Positions 2,815-18,240 of a DNA stretch of 52,814 nt are shown here, one piece after another; within the stretch, counting starts at the first letter, position 1, and each line of letters opens with the position of its first letter. Below the pieces are notes generated by a model. The model saw only the letters and a list, made by a program, of their open reading frames with translations. It did no database searches and had not been told where the DNA came from. The DNA is from Fusobacteriaceae bacterium. Lineage in GTDB: Bacteria; Fusobacteriota; Fusobacteriia; Fusobacteriales; Fusobacteriaceae. The stretch lies in assembly GCA_031289425.1 (NCBI GenBank), contig JAITPM010000028.1:1-52814 (forward strand), in the 5' to 3' direction. A program made the translations under genes and the position numbers.

Positions 2815-5460
2815 ATGATAAAAGGTCTTACTGAAGAAGAAGTAAGAAAAGCAAAAGAAGAATATGGGGATAATAGTTTGTCAGAATTAGAAAGTGAAGG
2901 TTTTTGGGATAAGCTGAAGGATAATTTCGGTGATCCAATGATAAAAATTCTTTGTGTAGCTCTCGTTGTAAATGTAATATTCGCTATTTTGGGGCAGGCT
3001 GAATGGTATGAATCTGTCGGTATCGCAATAGCTGTAATATTGGCTACTTTTGTTTCGACATATTCAGAATACCAAAACGAAAATGCTTTTCAAAAGCTTC
3101 AAGAAGAAGCCTCTAGAATAGTTTGTAAAGCATATAGAAACAATGAAGTTATTGAAATGTCAATAAATGACATTGTAGTGGGAGATTGGATTATACTGCA
3201 AACCGGGGATAAAGTACCGGCGGATGGAATTCTCATAGACGGAACAGTAAAGTTGGATCAGTCTGTTTTGAATGGAGAGACTAAGGAAGCATTAAAAATG
3301 GTTATGCCGTCTGATTATAAAGATGAAACCCAGGCTATGGATTTTTTAAACAAATATAAATTATATAGAGGATCGGTAGTGTGTTCCGGTAATGCTATCT
3401 TAAAAGTAACGACTGTTGGTGATAGGAGTGTCTATGGGCAAATCGCTAGTGAATTACAAATAAAAGATGACAGAGAATCTCCTCTAAAAATAAAATTGGC
3501 AAAGCTGGCGGATAATATCAGCAAATTCGGATATATAGGCGGCGGGGCGATAGCCATAGCATTTTTATTTCAAAGAATAGTTATTCACAATGGATTTGAA
3601 TTATCAAAGATAATCACTTATTGTTCCAATTGGAGTGTAGTTATAAATGATATCGTGCATGCTGTGATATTGGCTGTAATTATTATAGTTATGGCTGTTC
3701 CGGAAGGACTACCATTGATGATAGCCATTGTGTCGGCGCTCAATATGTCCAAAATGCTAAAGGATAACGTATTAGTCAGGAAAATAATAGGAATAGAAAC
3801 TGCGGGAAGTCTAAATCTTCTTTTTTCTGATAAGACCGGAACAATTACAAAGGGTAAGTTGGAAACGATACTTTTTGTGGATGGGAATGGGAATGAATAT
3901 AAGTCATACGATAAAATTCCACAAAAATTGAGAGATATATTATCAATAAATATGTTTAAAAATACAAACGCCATAGCTTCCGGAGAAAAACCCAATAGGA
4001 AAATAATAGGTGGAAATGCCACTGAAAGAGCGATACTATCTTTTGCTTCTGATTTTAATACTGATTCTGACCAAAAGATATTAAAAAGTGTTCCTTTTAA
4101 CAGCGAGAACAAATATTCTGCCTGCTCAGTATCGGGATATGAAGATATTACATTTGTAAAGGGAGCTCCAGAAAAAATAATAAATAATTGTGAATATTAT
4201 TATGATGGAGATGGTGAAAAAGTTGCTTTTTCAGAAGATAAGAATAAAAAAGTACAAGATATTATTACAGGACTTGCCAATAAAGCCATAAGGGTGCTTG
4301 CTTTTGCTACCAGTGAAAATCAAATAGATGAGGACATGTTTGATATAGATAAATGTACTATAATCGGATTTGTAGGAATAAGAGATGATGTGAGACCGGA
4401 ATCAATAACGTCAATAGGTGAGGTAATGGGAGCGGGAGTACAAGTTGTTATGATTACCGGCGATAGAAAGGATACTGCTATTGCTATAGCGAGAGAGTCC
4501 GGTTTGTTGAATGATGATGTCAATGATATAGTACTTACTTCTGATGAATTGGCAAAAATGTCCGATGATGAAATAAAAAATAAGATTTCTCATCTGAGAG
4601 TTGTATCAAGAGCATTACCTAGTGATAAATCACGTCTTGTAGGAATTGCACAATCATTAAATCTTGTGGTTGGAATGACCGGAGACGGTGTAAATGATTC
4701 TCCAGCCCTTAAAAAGGCAGATGTGGGCTTTGCTATGGGGGGAGGTACAGAAGTCGCTAAAGAAGCATCTGATATAGTGATTTTAGATGATAATTTCTCT
4801 TCAATTGATAAGGCAATTCTCTATGGAAGAACTATTTTTAATACTATAAGAAAGTTTATAATATTCCAATTGACAATAAATGTTACAGCAGTTCTTGTCT
4901 CGTTTATTACTCCTTTGATAGGTATGAATCCGCCTCTATCCATTACACAAATATTGTGGATAAATCTCGTGATGGATACATTGGCAGCGATTGCTTTCGG
5001 TGGAGAACCGGCTTTGGAAAGATTTATGAAAGAAAAACCAAAGCATAGGGAGGAAAATATAGTAAATAAATATATGTGGAGTTCTATCATTGTGGGCGGT
5101 CTCTGGACATTTACATTAAGCCTATTTATATTACTTTCCGATTTTTCTAAAAATATATTTAGGGAATCAATTGATGGAAAATATTTATTGACGGGATATT
5201 TTGCATTTTTCATTTTTGTAGCAGTTTTTAATGCATTTAATGCTAGAACAGAAAAAATTAATTTATTTGATAATATACTAAAAAACAGTGGTTTTTTCAA
5301 AGTAATAGTATTAATAATAGTAGTGCAAGTTGTTATGACGTATTTAGGTGGGCCAATATTAAGTTGTTATGGGTTGAATTTAAAAGAGTGGATTTTTATA
5401 TTAATAATGGCTTTTACTATAATACCGGTAGATTTATTGAGAAAAAAATTATTCAATTAA
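2815..5460 (+). CDS. Calcium-translocating P-type ATPase, PMCA/SERCA type
   Basis: An 881-residue P2-type ATPase predicted to expel Ca2+ from the cytoplasm using ATP. Visible in order: an N-terminal cation-ATPase domain, the A-domain TGE-equivalent (NGETKEA, about residue 154), PEGLP in M4 (about 295-299), the phosphorylation site DKTGTITKGK with D339, the TGDRKDTA motif (about 549) and GDGVNDSPALKKADVGFAMG from about 623. C-terminal membrane helices follow. Length is normal for bacterial PMCA-type pumps. The start has a strong site (GAGGAGAGG). It is the first gene of a same-strand run into the ter genes. Since TerD proteins bind Ca2+, a calcium pump here is functionally coherent, though that link is inference. 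Confidence 0.92.
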   Translation: MIKGLTEEEVRKAKEEYGDNSLSELESEGFWDKLKDNFGDPMIKILCVALVVNVIFAILGQAEWYESVGIAIAVILATFVSTYSEYQNENAFQKLQEEASRIVCKAYRNNEVIEMSINDIVVGDWIILQTGDKVPADGILIDGTVKLDQSVLNGETKEALKMVMPSDYKDETQAMDFLNKYKLYRGSVVCSGNAILKVTTVGDRSVYGQIASELQIKDDRESPLKIKLAKLADNISKFGYIGGGAIAIAFLFQRIVIHNGFELSKIITYCSNWSVVINDIVHAVILAVIIIVMAVPEGLPLMIAIVSALNMSKMLKDNVLVRKIIGIETAGSLNLLFSDKTGTITKGKLETILFVDGNGNEYKSYDKIPQKLRDILSINMFKNTNAIASGEKPNRKIIGGNATERAILSFASDFNTDSDQKILKSVPFNSENKYSACSVSGYEDITFVKGAPEKIINNCEYYYDGDGEKVAFSEDKNKKVQDIITGLANKAIRVLAFATSENQIDEDMFDIDKCTIIGFVGIRDDVRPESITSIGEVMGAGVQVVMITGDRKDTAIAIARESGLLNDDVNDIVLTSDELAKMSDDEIKNKISHLRVVSRALPSDKSRLVGIAQSLNLVVGMTGDGVNDSPALKKADVGFAMGGGTEVAKEASDIVILDDNFSSIDKAILYGRTIFNTIRKFIIFQLTINVTAVLVSFITPLIGMNPPLSITQILWINLVMDTLAAIAFGGEPALERFMKEKPKHREENIVNKYMWSSIIVGGLWTFTLSLFILLSDFSKNIFRESIDGKYLLTGYFAFFIFVAVFNAFNARTEKINLFDNILKNSGFFKVIVLIIVVQVVMTYLGGPILSCYGLNLKEWIFILIMAFTIIPVDLLRKKLFN

Positions 5461-5472
5461 AGTGAGGTTCTA

Positions 5473-6936
5473 GTGTCGAGTAATTATATATTTCAATATA
5501 AGACCAATATAAATCCAATGAAATTGAATTCCATGGTATCATTTTCTAATGTGAATGGTTATTTTTCTGAAAACAGAAAAGATGTATATTTCTTTAGATA
5601 TATCGGAATAGATACAAAGGAAAAATATAAAAATGAAATAATAAAAATTCATAATTATTTGAGTTCTAGAACTGATATAAAATATTTAAAAATTCAAAAT
5701 TTAGAAGCTTTTGCAAATGTAAATGTAAATTTAAATGTAGATGAAATAAAAAAAATTGTAATAAAACTGGAACAAAGCGAAATTTTGGATAAAAATGGAA
5801 ATTTCAATTGGATTTCTTTTGTTGACTTAGTGGAGTATAAGAAAAATATATCTGATATATTGCTAAAAGAATGTTGTATAGAAATAATAGATATGTATCG
5901 AAAAATAACAAAAAACTGCACTGTTACAATGATAAAAAATTTTATAATAAAAATTTCAAATTGGATAAATTCAATATTTCCAAAAATTTTTGAAGTAAAT
6001 ACTGAAATTAAACATGTCCCAAAAGTAATATATTGCGGGAAAATAAAAAATCAAGAATATTTATTTCTATATCTATTGGTAAAGATCGGATGTGATGTAT
6101 TGTACCTCAATCCTGAAAGGGATGCAGAGATTTCTTTGGAAATTTTGAAAACTTCTGATATATATGAAGAAAAAAATAAATGTTCATGTGATATTTTTAG
6201 AGAAATAGATGATGATATTATTGAACATAAAAGAAAAGAACAAAGAGAAAAAGAACAAAGAGAAAAAAAACAAAGAGAAAAAGAAACCATTTCAAAAAAT
6301 GAAGAAAACAGAAGTAAAGATATAAATAAAATAGAGGCCAAAAAAATAGAAAAATATATTGAAAAAGAAAAAACTTATGAAGAATTGGCAACTTTGGCCT
6401 CTTCGGTCGTAATGATAGGTACCTATGATAAAAATAAAAATTGTATAAAAACAGGCTCCGGAGTAGTGATTAGCGATAATGGACATATCCTTACTAATTT
6501 TCATGTCATATCAAATGGATATTATTTCGGTATACAGATAGAGAATGAAGACGATATATATTTTACTGATGAAATAATAAAATATAACAACCTGGATGAC
6601 CTTGCTATTTTGAAAATAGAGTATTACAAAAGAAAAATACCAATTTATAATACAAATAACGAATTGGTAAGAGGTCAAAAAGTAGTAGCAATAGGAAGTC
6701 CATTGGGTTTATTTAATTCTGTATCAAATGGAATAATTTCCGGTTTTAGAACTTTGAATGATATTTCAATGATCCAATTTACGGCACCGATTTCCCATGG
6801 AAGCTCGGGCGGAGCACTGTTGAATCTTGAAGGGCAACTTATAGGTATAATTACAGCCGGATTTGATAGTGGACAGAATATAAATTTGGCAGTCGATTAT
6901 AAAACAGTTTTTAAATTTACAAAAAATTTTTTATAA
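5473..6936 (+). CDS. YceG-like N-terminal domain fused to a trypsin-like (HtrA-type) serine protease
   Basis: A 487-residue protein starting at GTG, 12 bases after the ATPase gene, with GAGG upstream. Residues 1-230 resemble the N-terminal part of the YceG protein encoded at 10320: both have a YFxR segment, a helical stretch ending near a KIxxWI/KLxxWI motif, then a strand motif (PKVIYCGKIKNQE versus VKILYNGDISNHE) and a GCDVLYL/GCDIVIL strand. Residues about 255-310 form a highly charged KEQREKEQREK coiled coil with a 15-bp DNA repeat. Residues about 315-487 are a chymotrypsin-fold protease with triad H344 (TNFHVI), D376 (DDLAIL) and S445 (HGSSGGAL). There is no signal peptide, membrane segment or PDZ domain, so it should act in the cytoplasm. 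Substrate unknown; the context implies a role in the Ter stress response. Confidence 0.8.
   Translation: MSSNYIFQYKTNINPMKLNSMVSFSNVNGYFSENRKDVYFFRYIGIDTKEKYKNEIIKIHNYLSSRTDIKYLKIQNLEAFANVNVNLNVDEIKKIVIKLEQSEILDKNGNFNWISFVDLVEYKKNISDILLKECCIEIIDMYRKITKNCTVTMIKNFIIKISNWINSIFPKIFEVNTEIKHVPKVIYCGKIKNQEYLFLYLLVKIGCDVLYLNPERDAEISLEILKTSDIYEEKNKCSCDIFREIDDDIIEHKRKEQREKEQREKKQREKETISKNEENRSKDINKIEAKKIEKYIEKEKTYEELATLASSVVMIGTYDKNKNCIKTGSGVVISDNGHILTNFHVISNGYYFGIQIENEDDIYFTDEIIKYNNLDDLAILKIEYYKRKIPIYNTNNELVRGQKVVAIGSPLGLFNSVSNGIISGFRTLNDISMIQFTAPISHGSSGGALLNLEGQLIGIITAGFDSGQNINLAVDYKTVFKFTKNFL
6230..6285 (+). repeat. Purine-rich 15-bp tandem repeat within the protease gene
   Basis: About three to four imperfect copies of AAAGAACAAAGAGAA encode the KEQRE coiled-coil linker between the YceG-like and protease domains. 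The unit is a multiple of three, so copy changes would alter linker length without a frameshift. Confidence 0.65.
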
Positions 6937-7056
6937 AATAATATAAAATAATATAAAATAATAAAAAGTGATACAATATGTTATTATATGATATTATGTG
7001 ATATAAAATAATAAATATATTTAAAATATAATAAAAAAAATCGTTACGGAGGAAAA

Positions 7057-8034
7057 GTGGAAAAGGAATATTTAGTGTACAGTGTGGGAGCTCTTTTGTA
7101 TACTCCCGCAATCAGTGAAAAAATAGCTGATGATATTATAGATAATAAAATTGATAGCCCTTTTTCAATATCTCTATGCTTAGAAGATTCTATAAGCGAG
7201 GATGCAGTAGAATTTGCGGAAAATCAAGTTGTAAAAAATTTAGAAAAAATTTTCTCCGGTAAGAGAGAAAAGAAAGAATTTTATTGCCCCAAAATATTTA
7301 TTAGAGTGAGATATCCAAAACAAATATTTTCTATTTTTGATAGGATTAAAGAATTTAAAGAAATATTTACCGGATTTATTTTGCCGAAATATTCTCTTGA
7401 TAATGTTGATGAATATAATCATAATATGCTTGAAGTTAATAAAATTTCCGATAAAATTATATATATGATGCCAATATTGGAAAGTGGCGACATAGCAGAT
7501 TTGAATAAACGTTATGATACCCTACGTAAGCTCAAGGTAAAAATTGATGGGATATCTGATATCGTATTAAATATAAGAGTCGGCGGAAATGATTTTTGTA
7601 ATATATTCGGATTACGTAGACATTCTTATGAGACCATTTATGAGATTACCCCTGTCAAAAGCATACTCAGTGATATTTTGACTGTATTTTCTCGGGAATA
7701 TGTAATATCAGCTCCTGTATGGGAGTATTTTGGGAATGAAAAGGGCAATTGGAGTAAAGGACTGGAAAATGAAATAAAATATGATAAATTGAATGGATTT
7801 ATCGGAAAAACAGTAATACACCCCAGTCAAATTTCCATTGTAAATGATAGTTTAAAAATTGATGAAAATGATTATAATGATGCACTGTCTATAATAAATT
7901 GGAGGGAAGGAGAGAACCTTCAGGTATTGAAAAGTGCAAATATGGATAGAATGAATGAGATCAGAACGCATCTTAAATGGGCTCAGAAAATCGTAAAACT
8001 AGCTCAAATATATGGTACTTTGAAAAATGAATAA
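7057..8034 (+). CDS. HpcH/HpaI-aldolase-like C-C bond lyase of the Ter biosynthetic module
   Basis: A 325-residue enzyme with a TIM-barrel fold like citrate lyase beta subunits. The N-terminal SVGALLYTPA and the CLEDSI acidic motif (about residues 42-47) match the Ter-associated C-C bond lyase family, and a conserved RVGGNDF segment follows. It starts at GTG 4 bases after CGGAGG. The upstream 120 bp contain a three-copy AAAATAATAT repeat. The next gene overlaps it by 8 bp, which implies translational coupling. In published analyses of ter loci this lyase is one of the enzymes proposed to build a nucleoside-like metabolite; its actual substrate is unknown. Confidence 0.82.
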   Translation: MEKEYLVYSVGALLYTPAISEKIADDIIDNKIDSPFSISLCLEDSISEDAVEFAENQVVKNLEKIFSGKREKKEFYCPKIFIRVRYPKQIFSIFDRIKEFKEIFTGFILPKYSLDNVDEYNHNMLEVNKISDKIIYMMPILESGDIADLNKRYDTLRKLKVKIDGISDIVLNIRVGGNDFCNIFGLRRHSYETIYEITPVKSILSDILTVFSREYVISAPVWEYFGNEKGNWSKGLENEIKYDKLNGFIGKTVIHPSQISIVNDSLKIDENDYNDALSIINWREGENLQVLKSANMDRMNEIRTHLKWAQKIVKLAQIYGTLKNE

Positions 8035-9166
8035 AGAATATAAAATAGAGCAATTAGTAAAAGTTGCTAAAAGAGATAATAATAGTAAAAGACCGTATTT
8101 ATTGGTTAATCCTCTCCAGGGGAAACATATTCCGGTAGAACCTAGTAGTGCATTGGAATTATTTAAAAGTATATCGGATAAAGTCAATAAAAATTATCCC
8201 AATGAAAGATTACTTGTCATTGGATTCGCTGAAACAGCTACAGCCATAGGGGCTGTCATTGCTTGTAATTCTATCAATGGATCATATTATATCCAAACTA
8301 CAAGAGAAAATTTAAAAAATTCGGATTATTTATATTTTACAGAATCTCATAGTCATGCTACAGAACAAAAATTGATTCAAAATAATTTGGATACTATGAT
8401 TGCAAATACTGATAGAATAATATTTGCAGAAGATGAAATAACTACAGGAAATACAATTTTTGAGCTATTCAACATTTTGAAAGAAAAATATAAGAATAGA
8501 AATTTACATTTTGGCATATCTTCTATATTAAATGGGATTACGAAAGAATCTTTAGAAAAATTTGAAAAAAATAATATAAAATGCTTATATATAAAAAAAT
8601 TAGAAAAATTTGATTATGAAAATATATTAAGTAAATATTCGTATGATACAGGGTGCAAAATGCCAATATGTATGAATGATGATAAAAAATATTTTAAAGA
8701 AATTTCTGTTTTTGGAAATTCTGACCCTAGAATAGGAATATTAAGTAGTGAATACTTTGAAAATTGTAAGATTTTTTCTACAAAAATACTAAATAATTAT
8801 GAAAAAAATCAATTTAACAATAAAAGCGTGCTTGTTTTAGGAGCCGAAGAATTCATGTACCCCGCTATGGTTGTGGGAGCAGAAATAGAAAGAATATCTG
8901 AATCAGCAGAAGTAAAATTTCATGCATTTACGAGAAGTCCTATTCTTCCAAGTAAAGAAGATGATTATCCGCTACATGTGCGTTATGAATTACTAAGTAT
9001 ATATAACGATAAGAGAACTACTTATATATATAATATAAAAAAATACGATAAAGTTATAATATTACATGATTCAGAAAATTTCTATGAAAAATCTTTTGAA
9101 AGTATTTTCGCAACATTAAATGATGTCGGATGCGACGATATTGATATATATAGATGGAGTGTGTAG
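8027..9166 (+). CDS. Phosphoribosyltransferase with C-terminal TRSP domain
   Basis: A 379-residue protein. An orotate-PRTase-like N-terminal domain has GFAETATAIG (about 66-75) and the PRPP-binding loop AEDEITTGNT (about 134-143). The C-terminal domain contains the tetrapeptide TRSP at 302-305 that gives the TRSP domain its name. It should bind PRPP and transfer phosphoribose to an unidentified acceptor in the Ter biosynthetic module. It overlaps the lyase gene by 8 bp and is directly abutted by the StiP-type gene at 9167, so the three are almost certainly co-translated. Confidence 0.85.
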   Translation: MNKEYKIEQLVKVAKRDNNSKRPYLLVNPLQGKHIPVEPSSALELFKSISDKVNKNYPNERLLVIGFAETATAIGAVIACNSINGSYYIQTTRENLKNSDYLYFTESHSHATEQKLIQNNLDTMIANTDRIIFAEDEITTGNTIFELFNILKEKYKNRNLHFGISSILNGITKESLEKFEKNNIKCLYIKKLEKFDYENILSKYSYDTGCKMPICMNDDKKYFKEISVFGNSDPRIGILSSEYFENCKIFSTKILNNYEKNQFNNKSVLVLGAEEFMYPAMVVGAEIERISESAEVKFHAFTRSPILPSKEDDYPLHVRYELLSIYNDKRTTYIYNIKKYDKVIILHDSENFYEKSFESIFATLNDVGCDDIDIYRWSV

Positions 9167-10267
9167 ATGAGAAGCTCGTATACAGAAGATGATGTTATTT
9201 TATTATTAAAAGACATAACCGGCCTGATAATACCTAAAAAAACTGATGAAAGAGAAAAACTGATCCAGAGCGGAATACACTATAGTGAAATGTTGCCTCT
9301 TGAAGATAAATTAGGTGAACAATATATCCAAACTTATAAATTAGCACTTAAAAATTATGCCAAATCTACAGCAAACGCAGTTTCTGTTGTATCAGAAAAA
9401 ATATATGAAAAAAATAAAAAAAATAAAAAAAATATAGTGCTGGTGTCTCTAGCCAGAGCCGGTACACCAATTGGGATATTAATAAAACGGTATCTGGAAA
9501 AAAAATATAGAAGTTGTTATATTAAGCATTATTCCATATCAATCATAAGAGGGCGCGGGATAGATAAAAATGCTATGAGCTATATACTTGATAGACATTC
9601 GGCAAGTGATATTCAGTTTGTCGATGGATGGACAGGGAAAGGTGCTATTTTAAAAGAATTGGAAAAAAATATTGCTAAATACCCAAATATATCTCCAAAA
9701 CTTGCGGTCATATCTGATCCGGCAAATATTACTGATATGTGTGGGACTCATGAAGATATATTAATACCCAGTTCCTGTTTAAATTCTACCGTTTCTGGCC
9801 TTATTAGCAGGACATTTTTACGGGATGATATCATAAAAAATTATGATTTTCACGGAGCTATGTATTATGAAGAATTTGAAAATGAAGATGTTTCTTATGA
9901 ATTTATCGAAGAAATAGAAAAGAATTTTGATTTTAATGCTAAAAATAATGTTATAGAAAATAATAAAAACAAAGAAAATATAGACGGAATAATAAACGAA
10001 AATATAAACGGTGTATTGGAAGTAGAAGAACTTGCAAAATTTTATTCTATCAAGGATATTAATTTTATAAAACCTGGGATTGGTGAAACTACTAGGGTAT
10101 TGCTTAGAAGAACACCGTGGAAAATCATAATAAATAAACAATATGAAAATTCCGGTTTTTTGATTCACTTATTTAATTTGGCTATGGAGAAAAAGGTTCC
10201 TATAGAATATTATCCATTAAAAAATTATAAAGCTTGCGGTATTATAAAAAATATTTCTGATATATAG
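9167..10267 (+). CDS. StiP-family (PRTase-like) protein with C-terminal PELOTA-like domain
   Basis: A 366-residue protein starting directly after the TRSP gene stop. The N-terminal ~250 residues match the StiP/PRTase family of ter loci: SLARAGTPIG at about 94-103, HYSISIIRGRGID and FVDGWTGKGAI. The family has been annotated both as a cysteine protease (StiP) and as a phosphoribosyltransferase; the SLARAGTP and GWTGKG loops favour a PRTase fold. Residues about 285-366 form a PELOTA-type RNA-binding-like domain joined by an Asn/Lys-rich linker. It is proposed to act with the TRSP PRTase in making a nucleoside-like product. Confidence 0.82.
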   Translation: MRSSYTEDDVILLLKDITGLIIPKKTDEREKLIQSGIHYSEMLPLEDKLGEQYIQTYKLALKNYAKSTANAVSVVSEKIYEKNKKNKKNIVLVSLARAGTPIGILIKRYLEKKYRSCYIKHYSISIIRGRGIDKNAMSYILDRHSASDIQFVDGWTGKGAILKELEKNIAKYPNISPKLAVISDPANITDMCGTHEDILIPSSCLNSTVSGLISRTFLRDDIIKNYDFHGAMYYEEFENEDVSYEFIEEIEKNFDFNAKNNVIENNKNKENIDGIINENINGVLEVEELAKFYSIKDINFIKPGIGETTRVLLRRTPWKIIINKQYENSGFLIHLFNLAMEKKVPIEYYPLKNYKACGIIKNISDI

Positions 10268-10291: not shown

Positions 10292-10361
10292 ATCATTTTA
10301 TCTTTGGCGTGTGGTGAATATGTTTAAAAAATTAAAATTGACTAATATTGATGATTATTTT
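10292..10361 (+). repeat. HAD-3'/yceG-5' junction, copy 1
   Basis: These 70 bases align without gaps to 16960-17029 with about 57 identities. The part before the yceG ATG (10292-10319) translates as I-I-L-S-L-A-C-G, matching the C-terminus IILQLACD of the HAD enzyme encoded at 16210, although no HAD gene is present here. It therefore looks like the scar of a HAD gene tail in front of yceG. Confidence 0.7.
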
Positions 10362-12596
10362 AAAAAAATGTCTGAAAGAGAAAACGCAGGCGTTTATTTT
10401 GTTAGAATCATATATTATGGTAAAAAAACAGAAAATTTTTTAAAAAAATATTTACAAGAAATAAAAAATAATGGTATATATATAGAAGGGAAGTTGCAAA
10501 ACCCGGATCTAGAAAAAATAGAATTTTTTAGAACCATTTCAAATAATAGATTTGAACAAAACATAGATTTCTTTATGCATATTTTTTCCAAATTATTGCC
10601 TCAATTGAATTTGACTGAATCCAGAATAATATCGGAAGGTATATATGATATTTTGACCGAAATGAGTTCGACCGGTCAAAGTGAAAATATAATAGAAAAT
10701 TTTTATATAAAACTCATGTGCTGGATCTATTATAGATTTCAAGGAATTCTAAAAGTACTGAATTCTGATAGAACAGTAAAAATACTTTATAATGGAGATA
10801 TTTCTAATCATGAATTAAAATTGATGAGGATGTTTTCCAGAACAGGGTGTGATATTGTTATTTTGGAGCTTAACGGAGATAATGAATATCTAAAATTGGA
10901 TTTGAAATCTGAAATATCGGACATATTTTCTTGTGGTGAATCAGAAAAATTTCCCGATAAATTTTCTATAAAAGAAATCATAAATAATTTGCAATATGAA
11001 CAACAAGTAAATAAAAACATTGAAAGTATAGGTGCATTGCAAATAATCAATACTAACCAATGGATAAAAGATGACGTATTTAGCGCTTCATTGAAAAAAA
11101 ATAAAGAACGAGGAAATGGAGAAAAAGAAACAGAAGATAATACATTTTATAATATATTTGTACAGATAAATGGAGTAGAAAATGTTATAAGTTACAATAA
11201 TGAACTTGTAAAATGGAAATTAAAAATTAATGATTCTAAGAAAAAATTTGTTATCATAGATGGAAGGATAAAAAACCCAGAAACACATGAAGTGGAGAAA
11301 ATCAATAAAAAAACATATGTGAATAATTATGATTTGATAGCTAACCTATCTCAAAATATTTCTTTTACTAAATCTATAGAATTGGAAAAATTGTTAAAAA
11401 AGGCCTTTATAGAATTGATGAAAGAAGAGATAGAATCTACAATATCAAAGTTGCAAAACAGAGGAATATGTATCCTGTGCTGGATCAATAGATATATACC
11501 GCTTTTATTTGTAGATAAAAATCTAACAAGCAATCCTGTTTTTATATATTTTAACGGTAATACCAATGCTAATGATACTTTTTTCTTGAGACTTTTATCT
11601 AGGTTACCTGTAGATGTGTTTATATTATTGCCGGATTTATCTATCAATGGAAGTATAAATGATACAAATTTATTAAAAATAAATCATAATAATTCTCTGC
11701 CAACCGATAAATTCCCTGTAAATGCATCTGAAGTACAATTTGGAACGATTGCTTATCATGCAGAACAGGAGTTGGTGAATGTCCTCTATAGGGATACAGG
11801 TCTGTATAAAAATAAGCAATTTAAAAACGCAATACCGATTACATTGGAGACAACAGCTGAAGAAGTAGATATTTTGTGGAATCAAGAATCTAAATATCGC
11901 CCAAATTTTGAATCTTTTGATGATAAAGTGATGGTTCCGGTAATTTGCTCAAAACTTTTGGGGATTCCTGATAGAAATATAGATGCTTATTGGATAAGAA
12001 TCAAAAAACTTTTGACTGACGATTATATGTTGCTGAAAGAATTTCCATATGTAAAAAGTAAACCTTTGTCCAATGATAAGAATTTTATTTTTTCATTTAT
12101 AAATAACGGAAAGATAGATATCAAGAAAATATTGGATCATCCATCATATAAGTACAAATTTTTAAGAAGAGAAATGCAGGAATACATGTTGACTGGGTTA
12201 CAAAAACTTTTAGATAGCAGGATAATTAAAGGGACTTTCGAAAATGGGACAGAATATAGAATTATAAATCTAATATTGGATTTGAATATAGATTTTGTAA
12301 AACTTTTGAATAGCTATGATTTTACTAAAAAAATCCCTAAATTAGTCTGCATTGATACTACTGAAAATATTGGTACATTGGATGACGGTGTATTAATCGC
12401 TTATGCCAGACAATTGGGGTTTGATATAGTGTTTTTTGTTCCTACGGGATATCAAAGCATAGAGATATATTTTTCAACAAATTTCTTTATAGAACATCAA
12501 ATTGGTGAATATATGTATAATTTGACTGTTCCAAATTTTGATAAAATCAAAAATATTGACAAAGAAAGTATTATTAAAAAATTTTTTAGGCGGTGA
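10320..12596 (+). CDS. yceG: YceG family protein of the Ter system, with duplicated N-terminal domain
   Basis: A 758-residue protein from ATG 10320, chosen over GTG 10311 because the decayed paralog at 16988 starts with the same MFKK-KLT-I-DYF sequence. Residues 1-200 form a partial copy of the YceG fold, related to the N-terminus of the protease fusion at 5473. From about residue 360 there is a full YceG-type region ending with FVPTGYQSIEIYF and HQIGEYMYNL. Between them lies a variable Lys/Asn-rich linker. YceG accompanies TerD and TelA in Bacillus and many anaerobes; its biochemical role is unknown. Its stop overlaps the Shine-Dalgarno of telA. Confidence 0.85.
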   Translation: MFKKLKLTNIDDYFKKMSERENAGVYFVRIIYYGKKTENFLKKYLQEIKNNGIYIEGKLQNPDLEKIEFFRTISNNRFEQNIDFFMHIFSKLLPQLNLTESRIISEGIYDILTEMSSTGQSENIIENFYIKLMCWIYYRFQGILKVLNSDRTVKILYNGDISNHELKLMRMFSRTGCDIVILELNGDNEYLKLDLKSEISDIFSCGESEKFPDKFSIKEIINNLQYEQQVNKNIESIGALQIINTNQWIKDDVFSASLKKNKERGNGEKETEDNTFYNIFVQINGVENVISYNNELVKWKLKINDSKKKFVIIDGRIKNPETHEVEKINKKTYVNNYDLIANLSQNISFTKSIELEKLLKKAFIELMKEEIESTISKLQNRGICILCWINRYIPLLFVDKNLTSNPVFIYFNGNTNANDTFFLRLLSRLPVDVFILLPDLSINGSINDTNLLKINHNNSLPTDKFPVNASEVQFGTIAYHAEQELVNVLYRDTGLYKNKQFKNAIPITLETTAEEVDILWNQESKYRPNFESFDDKVMVPVICSKLLGIPDRNIDAYWIRIKKLLTDDYMLLKEFPYVKSKPLSNDKNFIFSFINNGKIDIKKILDHPSYKYKFLRREMQEYMLTGLQKLLDSRIIKGTFENGTEYRIINLILDLNIDFVKLLNSYDFTKKIPKLVCIDTTENIGTLDDGVLIAYARQLGFDIVFFVPTGYQSIEIYFSTNFFIEHQIGEYMYNLTVPNFDKIKNIDKESIIKKFFRR

Positions 12597-12601
12597 TAGA
12601 A

Positions 12602-13732
12602 ATGGCAATAGATTTTAAAAAAAATGAAAGTGTAGTTTTAAGAGAAGAAAAGTCATCTGATTTTGATGGTTTACAAGCGATTCAATATGATGTCATAGAA
12701 GATAGGAATATGCTATCAAAAGAATTAGCAAATTCAAAGGAAGTAGAAGAATTAGTGGGGCAGATATCTCCATATGACACTACTACAATTGTCTCATTTG
12801 GCGGTGAAACTGCTGAAGGGATTTCAAAATGCTCAGACGTAGTATTAAACAGTATGAACATGTCACAGATAAATGATACTGGAGAAATGTTGAGCGTATT
12901 GAAAAATATAATGGATAAGTTTGATATTGATGAAATAAGAGCAGAACCGGGTTTCTTTAAAAAAATTTTTGGAGATATGAAAAAGCAAATAGAAAAGATT
13001 TTGAGCAAATATCAAACTATGGGGACAGAAGTTGATAAAATTTTCATAAAACTCAAGGAATATGAAAACGAAATTCACCAATCTAATAAAAAATTGGAGA
13101 GTATGTTCCAAGAAAATGTAAAATATTATCATGACCTTTTAAAATATATTCTTGCTGGAGAACATGGTATAATAGAATTGAATGAATATACAGAAAAACA
13201 AAGAATAGAGATGGAACAAACCGGTAAAAGAGAAATGCAATTTGATATTGTAGCACTAGAGCAAGCAAAACAATTGTTGGAACAAAGAGTTCAGGATTTG
13301 AGGATAGCAGAAAATGTTGCTATGCAATCTATACCAATGCTGAAAACTATGCAGTTTAGCAATGTCAATCTTGTTAGAAAGATAAATTCTGCGTTTATAA
13401 TTACTCTTCCGGTATTTAAACAAGCTATATCCCAAGCTATATTATTAAAAAGACAAAAAATACAAGCTGAGGCTATGGATGCTCTTGATAAAAAAACCAA
13501 TGAACTTTTGCTAAAAAATGCTCAAAATACTGTAGAACAATCAAAAATGACTGCCAAAATGGTAACGGGAAGTTCTGTAAAAATAGAGACTTTGGAGCAA
13601 ACATGGAAAACGATAGTCTCAGGTATAGCGGAAACTAAGCAAATAAGTGATAATATGGCTAGACAAAGGGAAGAAGATAAAAAAAGACTCGATATCATTA
13701 AAAATGATTTCAATAAAATGTTTGGTAAATAA
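12602..13732 (+). CDS. telA: TelA/KlaA-family toxic anion resistance protein
   Basis: A 376-residue mostly helical cytoplasmic protein. ATG 12602 is chosen because GGTGA lies 5 bases upstream; the GTG at 12593 would overlap the yceG stop. Family features are the N-terminal SISPYDTTTIVSFG-like region (residues about 45-65), long coiled-coil helices, and the C-terminal QTWKTIVSGIAETKQI segment followed by a basic tail. TelA proteins protect against tellurite and cell-envelope stress together with TerD and YceG; mechanism unsolved. It sits between yceG and two terD genes, the order also seen in Bacillus-type yce operons though with the genes permuted. Confidence 0.9.
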   Translation: MAIDFKKNESVVLREEKSSDFDGLQAIQYDVIEDRNMLSKELANSKEVEELVGQISPYDTTTIVSFGGETAEGISKCSDVVLNSMNMSQINDTGEMLSVLKNIMDKFDIDEIRAEPGFFKKIFGDMKKQIEKILSKYQTMGTEVDKIFIKLKEYENEIHQSNKKLESMFQENVKYYHDLLKYILAGEHGIIELNEYTEKQRIEMEQTGKREMQFDIVALEQAKQLLEQRVQDLRIAENVAMQSIPMLKTMQFSNVNLVRKINSAFIITLPVFKQAISQAILLKRQKIQAEAMDALDKKTNELLLKNAQNTVEQSKMTAKMVTGSSVKIETLEQTWKTIVSGIAETKQISDNMARQREEDKKRLDIIKNDFNKMFGK

Positions 13733-13777
13733 TATATTGCAATATTAAAAAAAATTTAGATTATGGGGATGATGAAT

Positions 13778-14359
13778 ATGGCAATTAATTTAAGTAAAGG
13801 ACAAAAAATTGATTTGACAAAGGGCAATGCAGGATTGAAAAAATTATTGATTGGCTTGGGATGGGATACGAATAAATATGATGGTGGAGCTGATTTTGAT
13901 TTGGATGCTGCAGCATTTTTGACTGGTGCAAATGGAAAGGTAACAACACAGGAAGATTTCGTTTTTTATGGGAATTTAAAACATAAAAGTAATTCTGTAG
14001 AGCATTTGGGAGATAACTTGACAGGAGCAGGAGAAGGAGACGATGAACAAATCAAAGTTGATCTTTCATTGATTCCTGCTAATATTGAAAAGGTAGTTTT
14101 TTCTGTGACTATATATGATGCTGATAAGAGAAAACAAAATTTTGGACAAATATCAAATTCATATATTAGAATCATAGACGAAGAAAAGAGTCAAGAGTTG
14201 ATAAGATATGATCTAGGAGAAGATTTTTCTGTAGAGACGGCTCTTATTGTTGGGGAACTATACAGACATGGGAATGAATGGAAATTTAATGCTATCGGCA
14301 GTGGATTTCAAGGTGGACTAGCAGCAATTTGTAATAATTTTGGTATTGCTACTGAATAA
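13778..14359 (+). CDS. terD: TerD-family calcium-binding stress protein, copy 1
   Basis: A 193-residue TerD domain protein. The start is ATG 13778 ([15 protein letters not shown]), preceded by GGGGATGATG; an upstream in-frame ATG at 13763 overlaps that ribosome site and is unlikely. It has the typical [43 protein letters not shown] and [19 protein letters not shown] motifs. The acidic GDNLTG-GDDE stretch is the known Ca2+-binding region of TerD. It follows telA after 45 bp and lies in the same probable transcript as terD copy 2. Confidence 0.95.
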
Positions 14360-14501: not shown

Positions 14502-15098
14502 ATGTCAATTAGTTTGCAAAAAGGACAAAAGATAAGCCTTACCAAAGAAAGTAGCGCATTGAATAAAGTAATAATAGGATTGGGTTGGGATCAAATAGAG
14601 CAAAAAGCAGCAGGATTTTCATTTTTTTCTAAGAAGCCTGCTAATATAGATTGTGATGCTTCGGCATTATTGCTTCAAGGCGGGGAAATCAAAGATAAGA
14701 GTGATGTGGTATATTTTGGAAATTTGAAACATAAATCCAAATCTGTAGAACACATGGGTGATAATTTGACTGGAGCAGGAGAGGGAGATGACGAACAAAT
14801 ACTTGTTGAGTTATCTAAAGTTCCTGAAATATATGATAAAATAGTGCTTGTTGTAAATATATATAAAGCATTGGATAGAAATCAACACTTTGGAATGATA
14901 AAGAATGCTTTTATTAGGTTTGTAGATGTCAACACTAAAAAGGAATTATGCAAATATAATCTTACAGATGATTATAGTGGAAAAACTGCAATGATTTTTG
15001 GAGAATTGTACAGACATAATGGTGAATGGAAATTCAGCGCTATAGGTCAAGGTACAAATGATCCGGGGCTTTCTGAAATAATAAAAAGTTATTCTTAA
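14502..15098 (+). CDS. terD: TerD-family stress protein, copy 2
   Basis: A 198-residue TerD domain protein with the ideal ribosome site AGGAGGT 5 bases before ATG. It is clearly paralogous to the upstream Ter[40 protein letters not shown] and GELYRHNGEWKFSAIG. It differs by an insertion (AAGFSFFSKKP) just before the DCDASALLL strand, where the canonical DFDLDA sequence is changed to NIDCDA. The conserved acidic calcium-binding stretch is intact. A strong terminator follows, closing the main ter transcript. Confidence 0.94.
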   Translation: MSISLQKGQKISLTKESSALNKVIIGLGWDQIEQKAAGFSFFSKKPANIDCDASALLLQGGEIKDKSDVVYFGNLKHKSKSVEHMGDNLTGAGEGDDEQILVELSKVPEIYDKIVLVVNIYKALDRNQHFGMIKNAFIRFVDVNTKKELCKYNLTDDYSGKTAMIFGELYRHNGEWKFSAIGQGTNDPGLSEIIKSYS

Positions 15099-15195: not shown

Positions 15196-16200
15196 ATGAA
15201 AAAAATGAATATTTGGTTTAATCATTGGTTCAGTACGGTGTATCATATTATAAATCTTATAAAAAAAGATGTGGATATTAATTTTTTTGTCGTAGGAACT
15301 AATGAACAAGAGGATTCTGTCATAAAGAAAGCCTGTGACTTATGGGAAGTAGAGCCAAGGGGTCTATCCGAAAAGGAATATATAGATTATTCTTTGGAAT
15401 TTTGCCAAAAGTATAAAATTGAAATTTTTGTACCAAGAAGAAATCAATTTATTATTTGTAAAAATATTGAATTATTTGATAAAATCGGTGTAAAAGTATT
15501 AGTCGATAGGGATATCGAAAAACTTAAATTACTTCAGAATAAAAGAACGACATATGAACTTTTTAATGATTTGGAACTGGGATATATTCCGGAATACTAC
15601 TGTGTAAATTCTTTGGATGGTTTCAAAAATGCATATATAAAATTGAAAGAAAAACATGAAAAGATATGTTTTAAATTTGTCAAGGATGAGGGAGGAATGA
15701 GCTTTAAAGTAATAGATGATAATATTGATATATTATATAATGCCTCTCATGCAAAGGTTTCATTTTTAGATATTGCAAATCATTTGGGAAATAGAAAACA
15801 GATACCGGAAATTATGATGATGCCATATTTATCGGGAAAAGAAATCAGTGTGGATTGTTTGGATACAACTGATGGTCTCATTGCAATTCCCAGATTTAAA
15901 ACGAGGGGAAGAGCGGAAGTAATAAAATATGATACTGATATAATCAATATTTGTAGAGCTTTTTTTGATAAATGTGGGATAAAATATCCATGTAATATAC
16001 AGTTTAGATATCATAATGATAATTTGTATTTACTGGAAATAAATACAAGGATGTCCGGGGGAATACAATATTCTTGCCTAGCATCTGGGATCAATATTCC
16101 TAATATTGCAATAAATCAGCTGATTGGAATAAGAAAAAAGTGGATTGGAAATAATGAAGAAAGGAAAATATCATATATAGAAAATCCGATTTTATTATAG
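15196..16200 (+). CDS. ATP-grasp enzyme of the Ter biosynthetic module
   Basis: A 334-residue ATP-grasp ligase. An N-terminal preATP-grasp Rossmann region (NIWFNHWFSTVYHIINLI, PRRNQF) is followed by the ATP-grasp fold with CFKFVKDEGGMSFKV, EIMMMPYLSGKEISVD and the metal-binding LLEINTRMSGG (E281, N283). This matches the Ter-associated ATP-grasp family, with the characteristic N-terminal WFNHWFSTVY. Such enzymes join a carboxylate to an amine or thiol with ATP; the substrate is unknown. A ribosome site (ACGGAGAT) lies 8 bases upstream, and the HAD gene follows after 9 bases. Confidence 0.85.
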   Translation: MKKMNIWFNHWFSTVYHIINLIKKDVDINFFVVGTNEQEDSVIKKACDLWEVEPRGLSEKEYIDYSLEFCQKYKIEIFVPRRNQFIICKNIELFDKIGVKVLVDRDIEKLKLLQNKRTTYELFNDLELGYIPEYYCVNSLDGFKNAYIKLKEKHEKICFKFVKDEGGMSFKVIDDNIDILYNASHAKVSFLDIANHLGNRKQIPEIMMMPYLSGKEISVDCLDTTDGLIAIPRFKTRGRAEVIKYDTDIINICRAFFDKCGIKYPCNIQFRYHNDNLYLLEINTRMSGGIQYSCLASGINIPNIAINQLIGIRKKWIGNNEERKISYIENPILL

Positions 16201-16209
16201 AGGAGAATT

Positions 16210-16986
16210 ATGAATTTATTTGCTTCAGATATAGATAATACATTGATATATTCTTATAAGAGAAATATTGGCTCAAATAAAATTGTTGTGGAAAAAAAAG
16301 ATGAGTTTAATCTATCATTTATGACAGAAAAATCTTTTGCATTGTTATGCAGAATAAATGAAATTGCTACTTTTGTTCCGATTACTACACGATCTATTGA
16401 ACAATATAATAGAATAAATTTTGGGAATAAAGATTTACATAAGTTTGCTCTGGTATGTAATGGTGGAATATTATTGGATTGTGGGAAGTATGATATAGAG
16501 TGGTATAATGAGACTTTGAGAGATATAGAAGAATCTCTTTCGGAACTAGAAAAAGGGAAAGAAATTTTAAGGATAGATAAAAACAGAAATTTTGAAGTAA
16601 GGCATGTGGATAATATGCTTGTCTTTACAAAGAGTGAAAATATTTCTGATACTCTTGGTATTTTGAAGGAAAAACTTGATAATTCATTGGTCGATATATA
16701 TAATAATGGAGAAAAAGTATATATTACTCCAAAAAAGCTAAATAAAGGAAGAGCTCTTTTGAGATTAAAAAAGCTTTTTGGAACAAATGGGACTATTTGT
16801 GCAGGAGATAGTGAAATGGATGTATCAATGTTGGAATGTGCGGATATTTCGATACTTCCGGAAAAACTTTTTACTGATTATACGGATATGTTTAAAAATA
16901 AAACTTATGTTATTCCAAAGGATAGGATTTTTTCTGATGAAATGCTTGAAAAAGTAGAGATTATTTTGCAATTGGCGTGTGATTGA
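16210..16986 (+). CDS. HAD-superfamily phosphatase of the Ter locus (Cof/SPP-like)
   Basis: A 258-residue HAD hydrolase. Motif I is ASDIDNTL with nucleophile D7 and acid/base D9. Motif II Thr lies in FVPITTRS, and motif IV is CAGDSEMDVSM with D200. A cap of about 80 residues is inserted after motif II, as in sucrose-phosphatase and Cof-type enzymes. It starts 9 bases after the ATP-grasp gene (AGAGGAG site) and is the recurrent HAD partner of ter biosynthetic modules, likely dephosphorylating the pathway product. Its last codons overlap the duplicated junction shared with 10292-10361. Confidence 0.85.
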   Translation: MNLFASDIDNTLIYSYKRNIGSNKIVVEKKDEFNLSFMTEKSFALLCRINEIATFVPITTRSIEQYNRINFGNKDLHKFALVCNGGILLDCGKYDIEWYNETLRDIEESLSELEKGKEILRIDKNRNFEVRHVDNMLVFTKSENISDTLGILKEKLDNSLVDIYNNGEKVYITPKKLNKGRALLRLKKLFGTNGTICAGDSEMDVSMLECADISILPEKLFTDYTDMFKNKTYVIPKDRIFSDEMLEKVEIILQLACD

Positions 16987-17133: not shown

Positions 17134-18240
17134 TTATATACAAAAAACAGCGTATAAAGGAATAGACTTAATATTATTCTCAAACCCAAAATTTTTCCCT
17201 GATATACGTATACCGTATTGTGGGTTATATTTTGACATGTACACATTTAGACTTTTAGATTGGATACTAGTGCCAGCTTTCACTTCTATAGGGATTATCC
17301 CATCGTTGTTATATAATAAAAAATCTATCTCGGCATTGTTGCCGGAACTCCAATAATAAAGCGGTATACTATTGGAAGTTAAAGCTTGAACCACATAATT
17401 TTCTGCTATGACTCCTTTGAGCATAAAATTTCTATCAAGTAAAATATCAGACAAATTCATATCTAAAAGAGATGTTAAAAGTCCCACATCATTTAAATAT
17501 AATTTGAATTTATTTTCATCAATAAAAGCTTTTAGAGGTGGTTCAACTTTTGTGATATTGTCGCACCTACAGATCATATTGCTAGATGTGAGCCAATTTA
17601 TGGAACTTTCAAAAGTACGTTTGTTAGCATTTTTGTTTATTTCAGAATATTTAAATTTATTATTTTTTCTTGATAAAATAATTGGGATGGATTTATAGGT
17701 TTTTTCTATTTTAACTGCTTCCTGGTTGTTAAAAACGTATTTATTCATATCAGCTAGGTAGGCGATTATAATATTTGAAAGAATTTTTTTATTCCAGGAT
17801 AAAATATCTTCTTTTACTTTCAAATAATTGGAAATTGCCTCAGGCATTCCACCAATACATAAATATGTTCTGTATAAATTTATTAATTGCTCGTGAATAG
17901 GTGTCGGAGAAAGAGAGAAATAAGAATTTCTTATCTCTTCACTCCATATGGTCTTATCTAATGCCCATAAAAATTCTTCAAAGTCAAAGGTATACATATA
18001 TTCAATGATTACTTTACCGACAGGAAAGGAGGATTTAAATCTGTTTATTTTCACACCTAAAAGACTGCCGGCACAGATTATTTTATAAGGTTTAGCACTT
18101 TCACAGAAATATTTTAAGGAACTAATAGCTTCTTCAGATTCCTGTATTTCATCAAAGAAAATAATAGTTTTTTCTGGGATTATTTTTTTAGCTATAATTA
18201 ATTGTATTTTATTTATTTTTTCATAAAAAGAGGAAAATTT
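17134..18240 (-). pseudogene. AAA/DUF4143-family ATPase, 5'-truncated
   Basis: The C-terminal three quarters of an AAA_14-DUF4143 ATPase. The first in-frame ATG is at 18054, but homology continues upstream to about 18240 in the same frame: EKTIIFFDEIQESEEAISSLKYF is the Walker B region (positions about 18110-18180) followed by ICAGSLLGVKINRF. The Walker A/P-loop part is missing and is replaced by the tail of another DUF4143 gene. The DUF4143 end is complete (YYWSSGNNAEIDFLL, IPIEVKAG). Intact members are often stand-alone ATPases of unclear role. Without the P-loop this copy should not bind ATP. Confidence 0.8.

What the first reader, a model, noticed from the sequence alone, without database searches (positions are those of the whole stretch)
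5473..6936. Cytoplasmic HtrA-like serine protease fused to a YceG-type domain inside a Ter stress locus
The sequence shows a complete His344/Asp376/Ser445 triad without signal peptide, TM or PDZ, fused via a repetitive charged coiled coil to a domain shared with the YceG protein 3.4 kb downstream. I know of TerD/TelA/YceG and the biosynthetic module, but not of this fusion. It suggests proteolysis coupled to whatever YceG senses or binds, possibly a regulated stress or defence effector.
Basis: partly seen in the sequence, partly recalled or inferred. Interest (0 to 1): 0.8.

Follow-up and report, generated by a model that had tools for sequence, protein, structure and literature searches.

The report
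Stress-locus protease with YceG domain
A bacterial stress-resistance gene cluster carries an apparently intact protein-cutting enzyme, probably working inside the cell, joined to a copy of one of the cluster's own poorly understood domains; the same fusion recurs in at least 19 genomes from two bacterial phyla, so it is a real and conserved part of the system rather than a one-off.

Summary
The 487-aa ORF at 5473-6936 carries one YceG_bac domain (Pfam E=2e-15; profile match to canonical YceG repeats, E=3e-16 and 1e-14), a variable linker, and an HtrA/S1C-type protease with an intact triad and no PDZ, signal peptide or convincing membrane segment. It is not a singleton: I found it in 19 genomes, three in the window's family and 16 in Bacillota. 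In 15 of 18 placeable loci it sits with ter genes. All 16 aligned copies keep the triad. Both domains are under purifying selection; the linker is not, so the 'charged coiled coil' is not conserved. Both domain trees fit a single old fusion. It tracks the ter biosynthetic module: the marker StiP is in 18/19 fusion genomes but 18/54 YceG genomes without it (p=2e-6, relatedness not corrected). In the window's genome it is the only trypsin-type protease found. The YceG domain models confidently but matches no solved fold. Best reading: a cytoplasmic ter-system protease localised or gated by its YceG domain; ligand and substrate are unknown. A TerD-trypsin fusion was already on record, so the theme is not wholly new.

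The parts
5473..6936 (+). YceG_bac - S1C (trypsin-like) protease fusion gene, 487 aa
   Evidence: ORF; Pfam; 16-way homologue alignment A3
5500..6180 (+). YceG domain (residues about 10-236)
   Evidence: Pfam YceG_bac E=2.2e-15 at residues 37-236; hhalign to canonical repeats 98.7% and 98.4%; AF2 pLDDT 86.8
6181..6378 (+). variable charged linker (residues about 237-302)
   Evidence: low pLDDT; length and composition vary, no purifying selection
6379..6933 (+). S1C/HtrA-like protease domain (residues about 303-487), no PDZ
   Evidence: Trypsin_2 E=4.5e-25; best sequence matches RsgI9 and HTRA1, best fold matches DegS protease domain without PDZ
6502..6504 (+). catalytic His344 codon
   Evidence: 16/16 conserved
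6598..6600 (+). catalytic Asp376 codon
   Evidence: 16/16 conserved
6805..6807 (+). catalytic Ser445 codon (GSSGG)
   Evidence: 16/16 conserved
5462..5467 (+). Shine-Dalgarno-like GTGAGG before the GTG start
   Evidence: sequence printed; consensus resemblance only
2815..5460 (+). P-type Ca2+-translocating ATPase, 12 nt upstream of the fusion
   Evidence: NCBIfam TIGR01517 618 bits over cut-off 507
7057..8034 (+). C-C bond lyase of the ter biosynthetic module
   Evidence: Pfam PF15617 E=2.5e-98
8027..9166 (+). phosphoribosyltransferase PRTase_2 with TRSP domain
   Evidence: Pfam
9167..10267 (+). StiP with PELOTA_1 domain
   Evidence: Pfam PF11202 E=9e-100 and PF15608
10311..12596 (+). canonical YceG, three YceG repeats
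   Evidence: Pfam, 3 stretches; repeats mapped
12593..13732 (+). TelA
   Evidence: Pfam PF05816 E=1.3e-93
13763..14359 (+). TerD
   Evidence: Pfam PF02342 E=1.2e-85
14502..15098 (+). second TerD-like protein
   Evidence: read as TerD-like from its sequence, which resembles the TerD product of 13763; not scanned with Pfam
15196..16200 (+). ATP-grasp enzyme of ter operons
   Evidence: Pfam ATPgrasp_Ter E=1e-36
16210..16986 (+). HAD hydrolase of the module
   Evidence: Pfam Hydrolase_3

Best explanation
This is a cytoplasmic serine protease that belongs to the ter stress system. A secretion-type S1C protease domain was joined once, long ago, to a copy of the ter system's own YceG domain, and the unit has since travelled with ter loci. 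The YceG domain localises or gates the protease through the same ligand or partner that canonical YceG uses; the flexible linker lets the protease swing. When the ter system is engaged, the protease cuts cytoplasmic or membrane-face substrates, most likely ter-complex or other stress-related proteins. Shown: architecture, homology of both halves, intact triad, purifying selection, linkage to ter loci and to the biosynthetic module. Inferred: cytoplasmic location (by hydropathy), catalytic activity, control by the YceG domain. Unknown: ligand and substrate.
For: Both domains over Pfam cut-offs in the window protein and both detected in 16/16 homologues. Profile comparison of fusion YceG with canonical repeat 1 (98.7%, E=3.3e-16) and repeat 2 (98.4%, E=1e-14); TelA control 0.2%. 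Triad 16/16. dN/dS between two orthologues 0.13 (YceG), 0.05 (protease), 1.38 (linker, few changes). Fifteen of 18 placeable loci sit with ter genes. StiP in 18/19 fusion genomes versus 18/54 YceG genomes without fusion, Fisher p=2.3e-6. Fusion proteases form one clade (0.995) and fusion YceG domains one clade (0.99 for all but one member), with several shared subgroups. Residues nearly invariant across 78 YceG domains (N156, W164, G189, D208) are kept in the fusion, and the G189-K192-E195 stretch lies in the loop after a strand, where alpha/beta folds often bind ligands (general knowledge).
Against: No activity, ligand, partner or substrate has been shown. YceG has no known biochemical function that I could find, and its model matches no solved fold (E<=0.001: none). 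Three fusions (L099, L102, L104) are not beside ter genes, although two of those genomes have YceG and StiP elsewhere; the third, L102, has neither. Most YceG genomes sampled lack the fusion, so it is accessory. The co-occurrence test does not correct for relatedness or for incomplete genomes. The YceG half is much less conserved (29% mean pairwise identity) than the protease (61%), which fits a loosely constrained tether as well as a sensor.
Confidence: 0.55

Rival explanations
1. Docked processing enzyme: the YceG domain only tethers a constitutively active protease to the YceG-TelA-TerD assembly, which it matures or trims. No small molecule is sensed.
For: Canonical YceG proteins consist of two or three copies of the domain, so domain-domain contact is plausible. 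All but one fusion genome also encode canonical YceG. The YceG half diverges faster than the protease. The S1C domain resembles DegS without PDZ; that such a deletion form of DegS is active without its PDZ signal is general knowledge.
Against: The fusion tracks the biosynthetic module more than YceG itself. No interaction data. Many ter loci do without the fusion.
Confidence: 0.2
2. Defence effector: a suicide or anti-phage protease that is unleashed when phage disturbs the ter metabolite or complex.
For: PADLOC RT-Protease_XI (retron) profile matches residues 283-484 at E=4.7e-19. Trypsin-like effectors are known in defence systems (general knowledge).
Against: The match covers only the generic protease fold; HtrA profiles score better. 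Among the ter proteins scanned the only other PADLOC match is a weak phosphoribosyltransferase one. No YceG-protease fusion among the listed hits in viral, phage or plasmid collections, only protease-domain matches. It sits in a ter operon.
Confidence: 0.12
3. General quality-control protease that stands in for a missing HtrA/DegP.
For: It is the only Trypsin_2 protein found in G000, G054 and G056.
Against: G001 and G002, of the same genus, have none and evidently cope. Bacillota genomes that lack the fusion carry other S1C proteases, and most fusions are in ter loci. No PDZ and no export signal.
Confidence: 0.08
4. Inactive scaffold: the protease half binds a partner but does not cut.
For: Some S1 homologues are pseudoproteases (general knowledge).
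Against: Triad 16/16 and the GSSGG stretch around Ser445 kept; the strongest purifying selection of the whole protein lies on the protease.
Confidence: 0.05

Closest known systems
TerD-trypsin fusion of Pseudomonas syringae (YP_273108.1), listed in PMC2605481 (2008)
   Same: A ter-family domain N-terminal to a trypsin-family protease; described there as not functionally characterised
   Different: Ter half is TerD, not YceG; a single protein in that survey; its ter context was not examined here
HtrA/Deg (S1C) proteases: DegS, HTRA1
   Same: Protease fold and triad; Foldseek best hit DegS without PDZ, E=3.3e-13; sequence matches HTRA1
   Different: No PDZ, no export signal; NCBIfam DegP/HtrA model reached at 105 bits against a 416-bit cut-off; N-terminal YceG domain instead
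RsgI9 S1C-NTF2 protein of Clostridium thermocellum (PDB 7sjy)
   Same: Best sequence match in the PDB for the protease half, E=1.1e-32
   Different: Anti-sigma factor with an NTF2-like domain; the deposited sequence has Thr where the fusion has Ser445
Canonical YceG (YceG_bac, PF14266) of ter loci
   Same: Homologous domain, conserved positions kept
   Different: Canonical proteins carry two or three YceG domains and no protease. Not the E. coli YceG/MltG lytic transglycosylase, which shares only the name (and general knowledge)
Retron RT-Protease_XI (PADLOC)
   Same: Protease domain similarity, E=4.7e-19
   Different: No reverse transcriptase; genomic context is ter, not retron

Membership tests
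S1C (HtrA-like) serine protease domain | Trypsin-fold domain with His-Asp-Ser triad | tested here: met
   Trypsin_2 E=4.5e-25; triad 16/16; Foldseek DegS E=3.3e-13
HtrA/Deg equivalogs | C-terminal PDZ domain(s) | tested here: not met
   No PDZ in Pfam scan; scores far below NCBIfam cut-offs
HtrA/Deg equivalogs | Export or membrane anchor | tested here: not met
   No N-terminal hydrophobic segment in the window protein; max 19-residue hydropathy 1.37; hydropathy only, no trained predictor available
HtrA/Deg equivalogs | Trimeric, regulated proteolysis | not testable with these tools
   Needs biochemistry or complex modelling
YceG_bac domain family (PF14266) | Score over the curated cut-off | tested here: met
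   57.4 bits against 25; 16/16 homologues matched at E<=0.01
YceG_bac domain family (PF14266) | Two or three domain copies per protein, as in canonical YceG | tested here: not met
   One copy in every fusion
Ter stress-response locus component | Encoded with TerD, TelA, YceG and the biosynthetic genes | tested here: met
   Window operon; 15/18 loci with ter or module genes
Ter stress-response locus component | Role in tellurite or other stress resistance | not testable with these tools
   Phenotype needed
Retron RT-protease | Reverse transcriptase domain in the same protein | tested here: not met
   Only YceG and trypsin families above cut-off

The most novel reading that the evidence does not exclude
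The YceG domain is the receptor for the nucleoside-like product proposed for the ter biosynthetic module, and this protein is a metabolite-gated cytoplasmic protease: a second-messenger-like stress circuit in which ter loci make a signal that switches on proteolysis.
Probability: 0.25. Interest if true: 0.85.

Novelty: new variant of a known kind. Interest (0 to 1): 0.52.

Why it matters
Ter loci are widespread, yet what YceG and the module's product do is unknown (background knowledge; the main paper could not be read here). A conserved fusion of YceG to an enzyme whose activity can be assayed gives a handle: protease activity can be used as a readout for YceG ligands or partners, and cleaved substrates would show what the system acts on. 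It also shows a secretion-type protease apparently reused inside the cell, in genomes where no other trypsin-type protease was found.

Tried and rejected
Singleton or chance fusion: rejected, 19 genomes. Conserved coiled-coil linker: rejected. Inactive protease: unlikely. Recent local fusion from the genome's own HtrA: rejected, no other Trypsin_2 protein in the genome and both domain trees give one old clade. Strict link to three-repeat YceG: weak; my hand count was 15/45 three-repeat against 2/26 two-repeat YceG genomes, Fisher p=0.02. A rhomboid gene beside YceG looked specific to fusion loci but is also in 4 of 20 fusion-free loci when enough flank is read: dropped. About 493-aa single-hit YceG frames as further fusions: rejected, they are canonical-type YceG beside TelA. 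Four high-scoring proteases (L110-L113) as fusions: rejected, they begin with a signal-peptide-like segment and a repeated N-terminal domain, not YceG. Known fold for YceG: none in PDB or viral models at E<=0.001. First named-genome scan with the single sequence found nothing. Phage or plasmid carriage: none found. Literature: TerD-trypsin is the nearest item found; other searches gave no YceG-protease description.

Full report
Observation. The ORF at 5473-6936 encodes 487 aa from a GTG start. It begins 12 nt after a Ca2+-type P-type ATPase gene and is followed by the ter biosynthetic genes, canonical YceG, TelA and two TerD-type genes. Pfam places YceG_bac at residues 37-236 (E=2.2e-15, 57 bits, cut-off 25) and Trypsin_2 at 328-459 (E=4.5e-25); no PDZ is matched. 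The product of 10311-12596 is canonical YceG with three YceG stretches.

Is the N-terminal half really YceG? Yes. A profile of 15 fusion YceG domains aligns with the first repeat of canonical YceG at 98.7% (E=3.3e-16) and with the second at 98.4% (E=1e-14); TelA as a control gives 0.2%. Over 78 YceG domains, four positions are nearly invariant (N156, W164, G189, D208 in window numbering) and all are kept in the window's fusion. An AlphaFold model of the domain is confident (mean pLDDT 86.8, pTM 0.87) but no solved or viral structure matches at E<=0.001, and no PDB sequence match is better than E=0.14. Its function therefore cannot be read from fold.

The protease half. H344, D376 and S445 are present in 16 of 16 aligned homologues. 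Best solved relatives are the S1C domain of RsgI9 and HTRA1 by sequence, and DegS lacking its PDZ by fold. It is not an HtrA equivalog: the best DegP/HtrA model scores 105 bits against a cut-off of 416. The window protein has no N-terminal hydrophobic segment and no 19-residue window above 1.4 in hydropathy; a few homologues reach 1.6-2.0 inside the YceG half, at a predicted strand-helix unit, so I read all as soluble, but this is a heuristic.

The linker. The window's charged repeat is not conserved. Homologous linkers run from 30 to 125 aa, share 15% identity, and have a dN/dS of 1.38 between two close orthologues (few changes), against 0.13 for YceG and 0.05 for the protease. It is a tether, not a conserved coiled coil.

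How common? In the window's class, 7 of 98 genomes have YceG and three have the fusion. All three fusion genomes lie in the window's family, and they carry one Trypsin_2 protein each, the fusion; two congeners of the window genome (G001, G002) have YceG but no Trypsin_2 protein. A named Bacillota genome, an uncultured Eubacteriaceae bacterium (CANOGI010000058.1), carries a 39% identical full-length fusion in a ter locus. In its order, 52 of 295 genomes have YceG; I extracted 12 further intact fusions there beyond the named genome's own and found one split over contigs (G377). A phylum sample (16 of 398 with YceG) gave two more, L104 and L105. Total: 19 genomes, three in the window's class and 16 in Bacillota. 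No fusion was seen among the hits in plasmid, phage or viral collections; there only the protease half finds matches, apart from one YceG family protein on a plasmid. Sampling is partial and many genomes are drafts, so these are lower bounds.

Context. Of 18 placeable loci, 13 lie with YceG (most with further ter genes), two (on short contigs) with module genes, and three (L099, L102, L104) with neither. The genomes of L099 and L104 have YceG and StiP elsewhere; that of L102, whose protein is divergent and has a C-terminal extension, has neither. StiP, used as marker of the biosynthetic module, is in 18 of 19 fusion genomes and 18 of 54 YceG genomes without the fusion (Fisher p=2.3e-6). Relatedness is not corrected. 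The fusion is thus an accessory that goes with the module, not with YceG alone. Ter loci with the module but without the fusion exist (G079; L127, L129, L135).

Origin. Fusion proteases form one clade (support 0.995) apart from PDZ-type HtrAs, in a group with extracytoplasmic-looking clostridial S1C proteins (L110-L113). Fusion YceG domains form one clade (0.99 without L102). Several subgroups recur in both trees, as expected if the two halves were joined once and inherited together. The window's class members sit inside the Bacillota diversity, which suggests transfer of the locus between phyla; deeper branches are weakly supported.

Mechanism. I favour a cytoplasmic ter-system protease whose YceG domain localises or gates it through canonical YceG's ligand or partner. 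The conserved G189-K192-E195 loop after a strand would suit ligand binding, but that rests on general knowledge of alpha/beta folds, not on a test. Tethering alone is the main rival. A defence role rests only on a generic match to retron RT-Protease_XI. Nothing here shows activity, ligand or substrate.

Known or new? A TerD-trypsin fusion in P. syringae is on record and uncharacterised (PMC2605481). I found no paper on a YceG-protease fusion, but the main ter genomics paper (Anantharaman et al. 2012) is not held and may list it. E. coli YceG/MltG is a different protein with the same name. Verdict: real, conserved, a new variant of a known kind as far as I can tell, moderately interesting because it offers an assayable handle on YceG.

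Noticed in passing
L045:3192-3815; L094, L100, L101, L086, L097; also L128, L129, L131, L135: A rhomboid intramembrane protease gene lies directly beside YceG in six fusion-bearing ter loci and in 4 of 20 fusion-free ones. It looks like a second, recurrent protease of clostridial ter loci; absent from the window.
   Followed up: partly
window 6937-7056: AT-rich, repetitive 120-nt gap after the fusion, where the two orthologous loci (L021, L022) carry a 218-aa TerD-like gene; possible relic of a lost gene or of an insertion point.
   Followed up: no
window 10311-12596: Canonical YceG exists in a two-domain (about 490-590 aa) and a three-domain (about 750-850 aa) form. In two genomes (G159, G284) it is split into two frames.
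   Followed up: partly
L132, L139: 393-397-aa proteins matching TerD directly upstream of YceG, about twice the length of ordinary TerD; possible tandem TerD.
   Followed up: no
L110-L113: Extracytoplasmic-looking S1C proteases with a repeated N-terminal domain and a C-terminal extension; grouped with the fusion protease clade, possible source of its protease half.
   Followed up: partly
L102:4939-6639 (G133): Divergent fusion with an extra C-terminal region of roughly 115 aa, in a genome without canonical YceG or StiP, near SLH and Big_2 domain genes.
   Followed up: partly
window 17134-18054, minus strand: 306-aa ORF on the opposite strand after the ter operon, from sequence a possible DUF4143-type remnant of an AAA ATPase; not checked.
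   Followed up: no
window 9167-10267: Pfam names StiP a cysteine protease although it sits with phosphoribosyltransferase-type genes; the name may mislead when proteolysis in ter loci is discussed.
   Followed up: no
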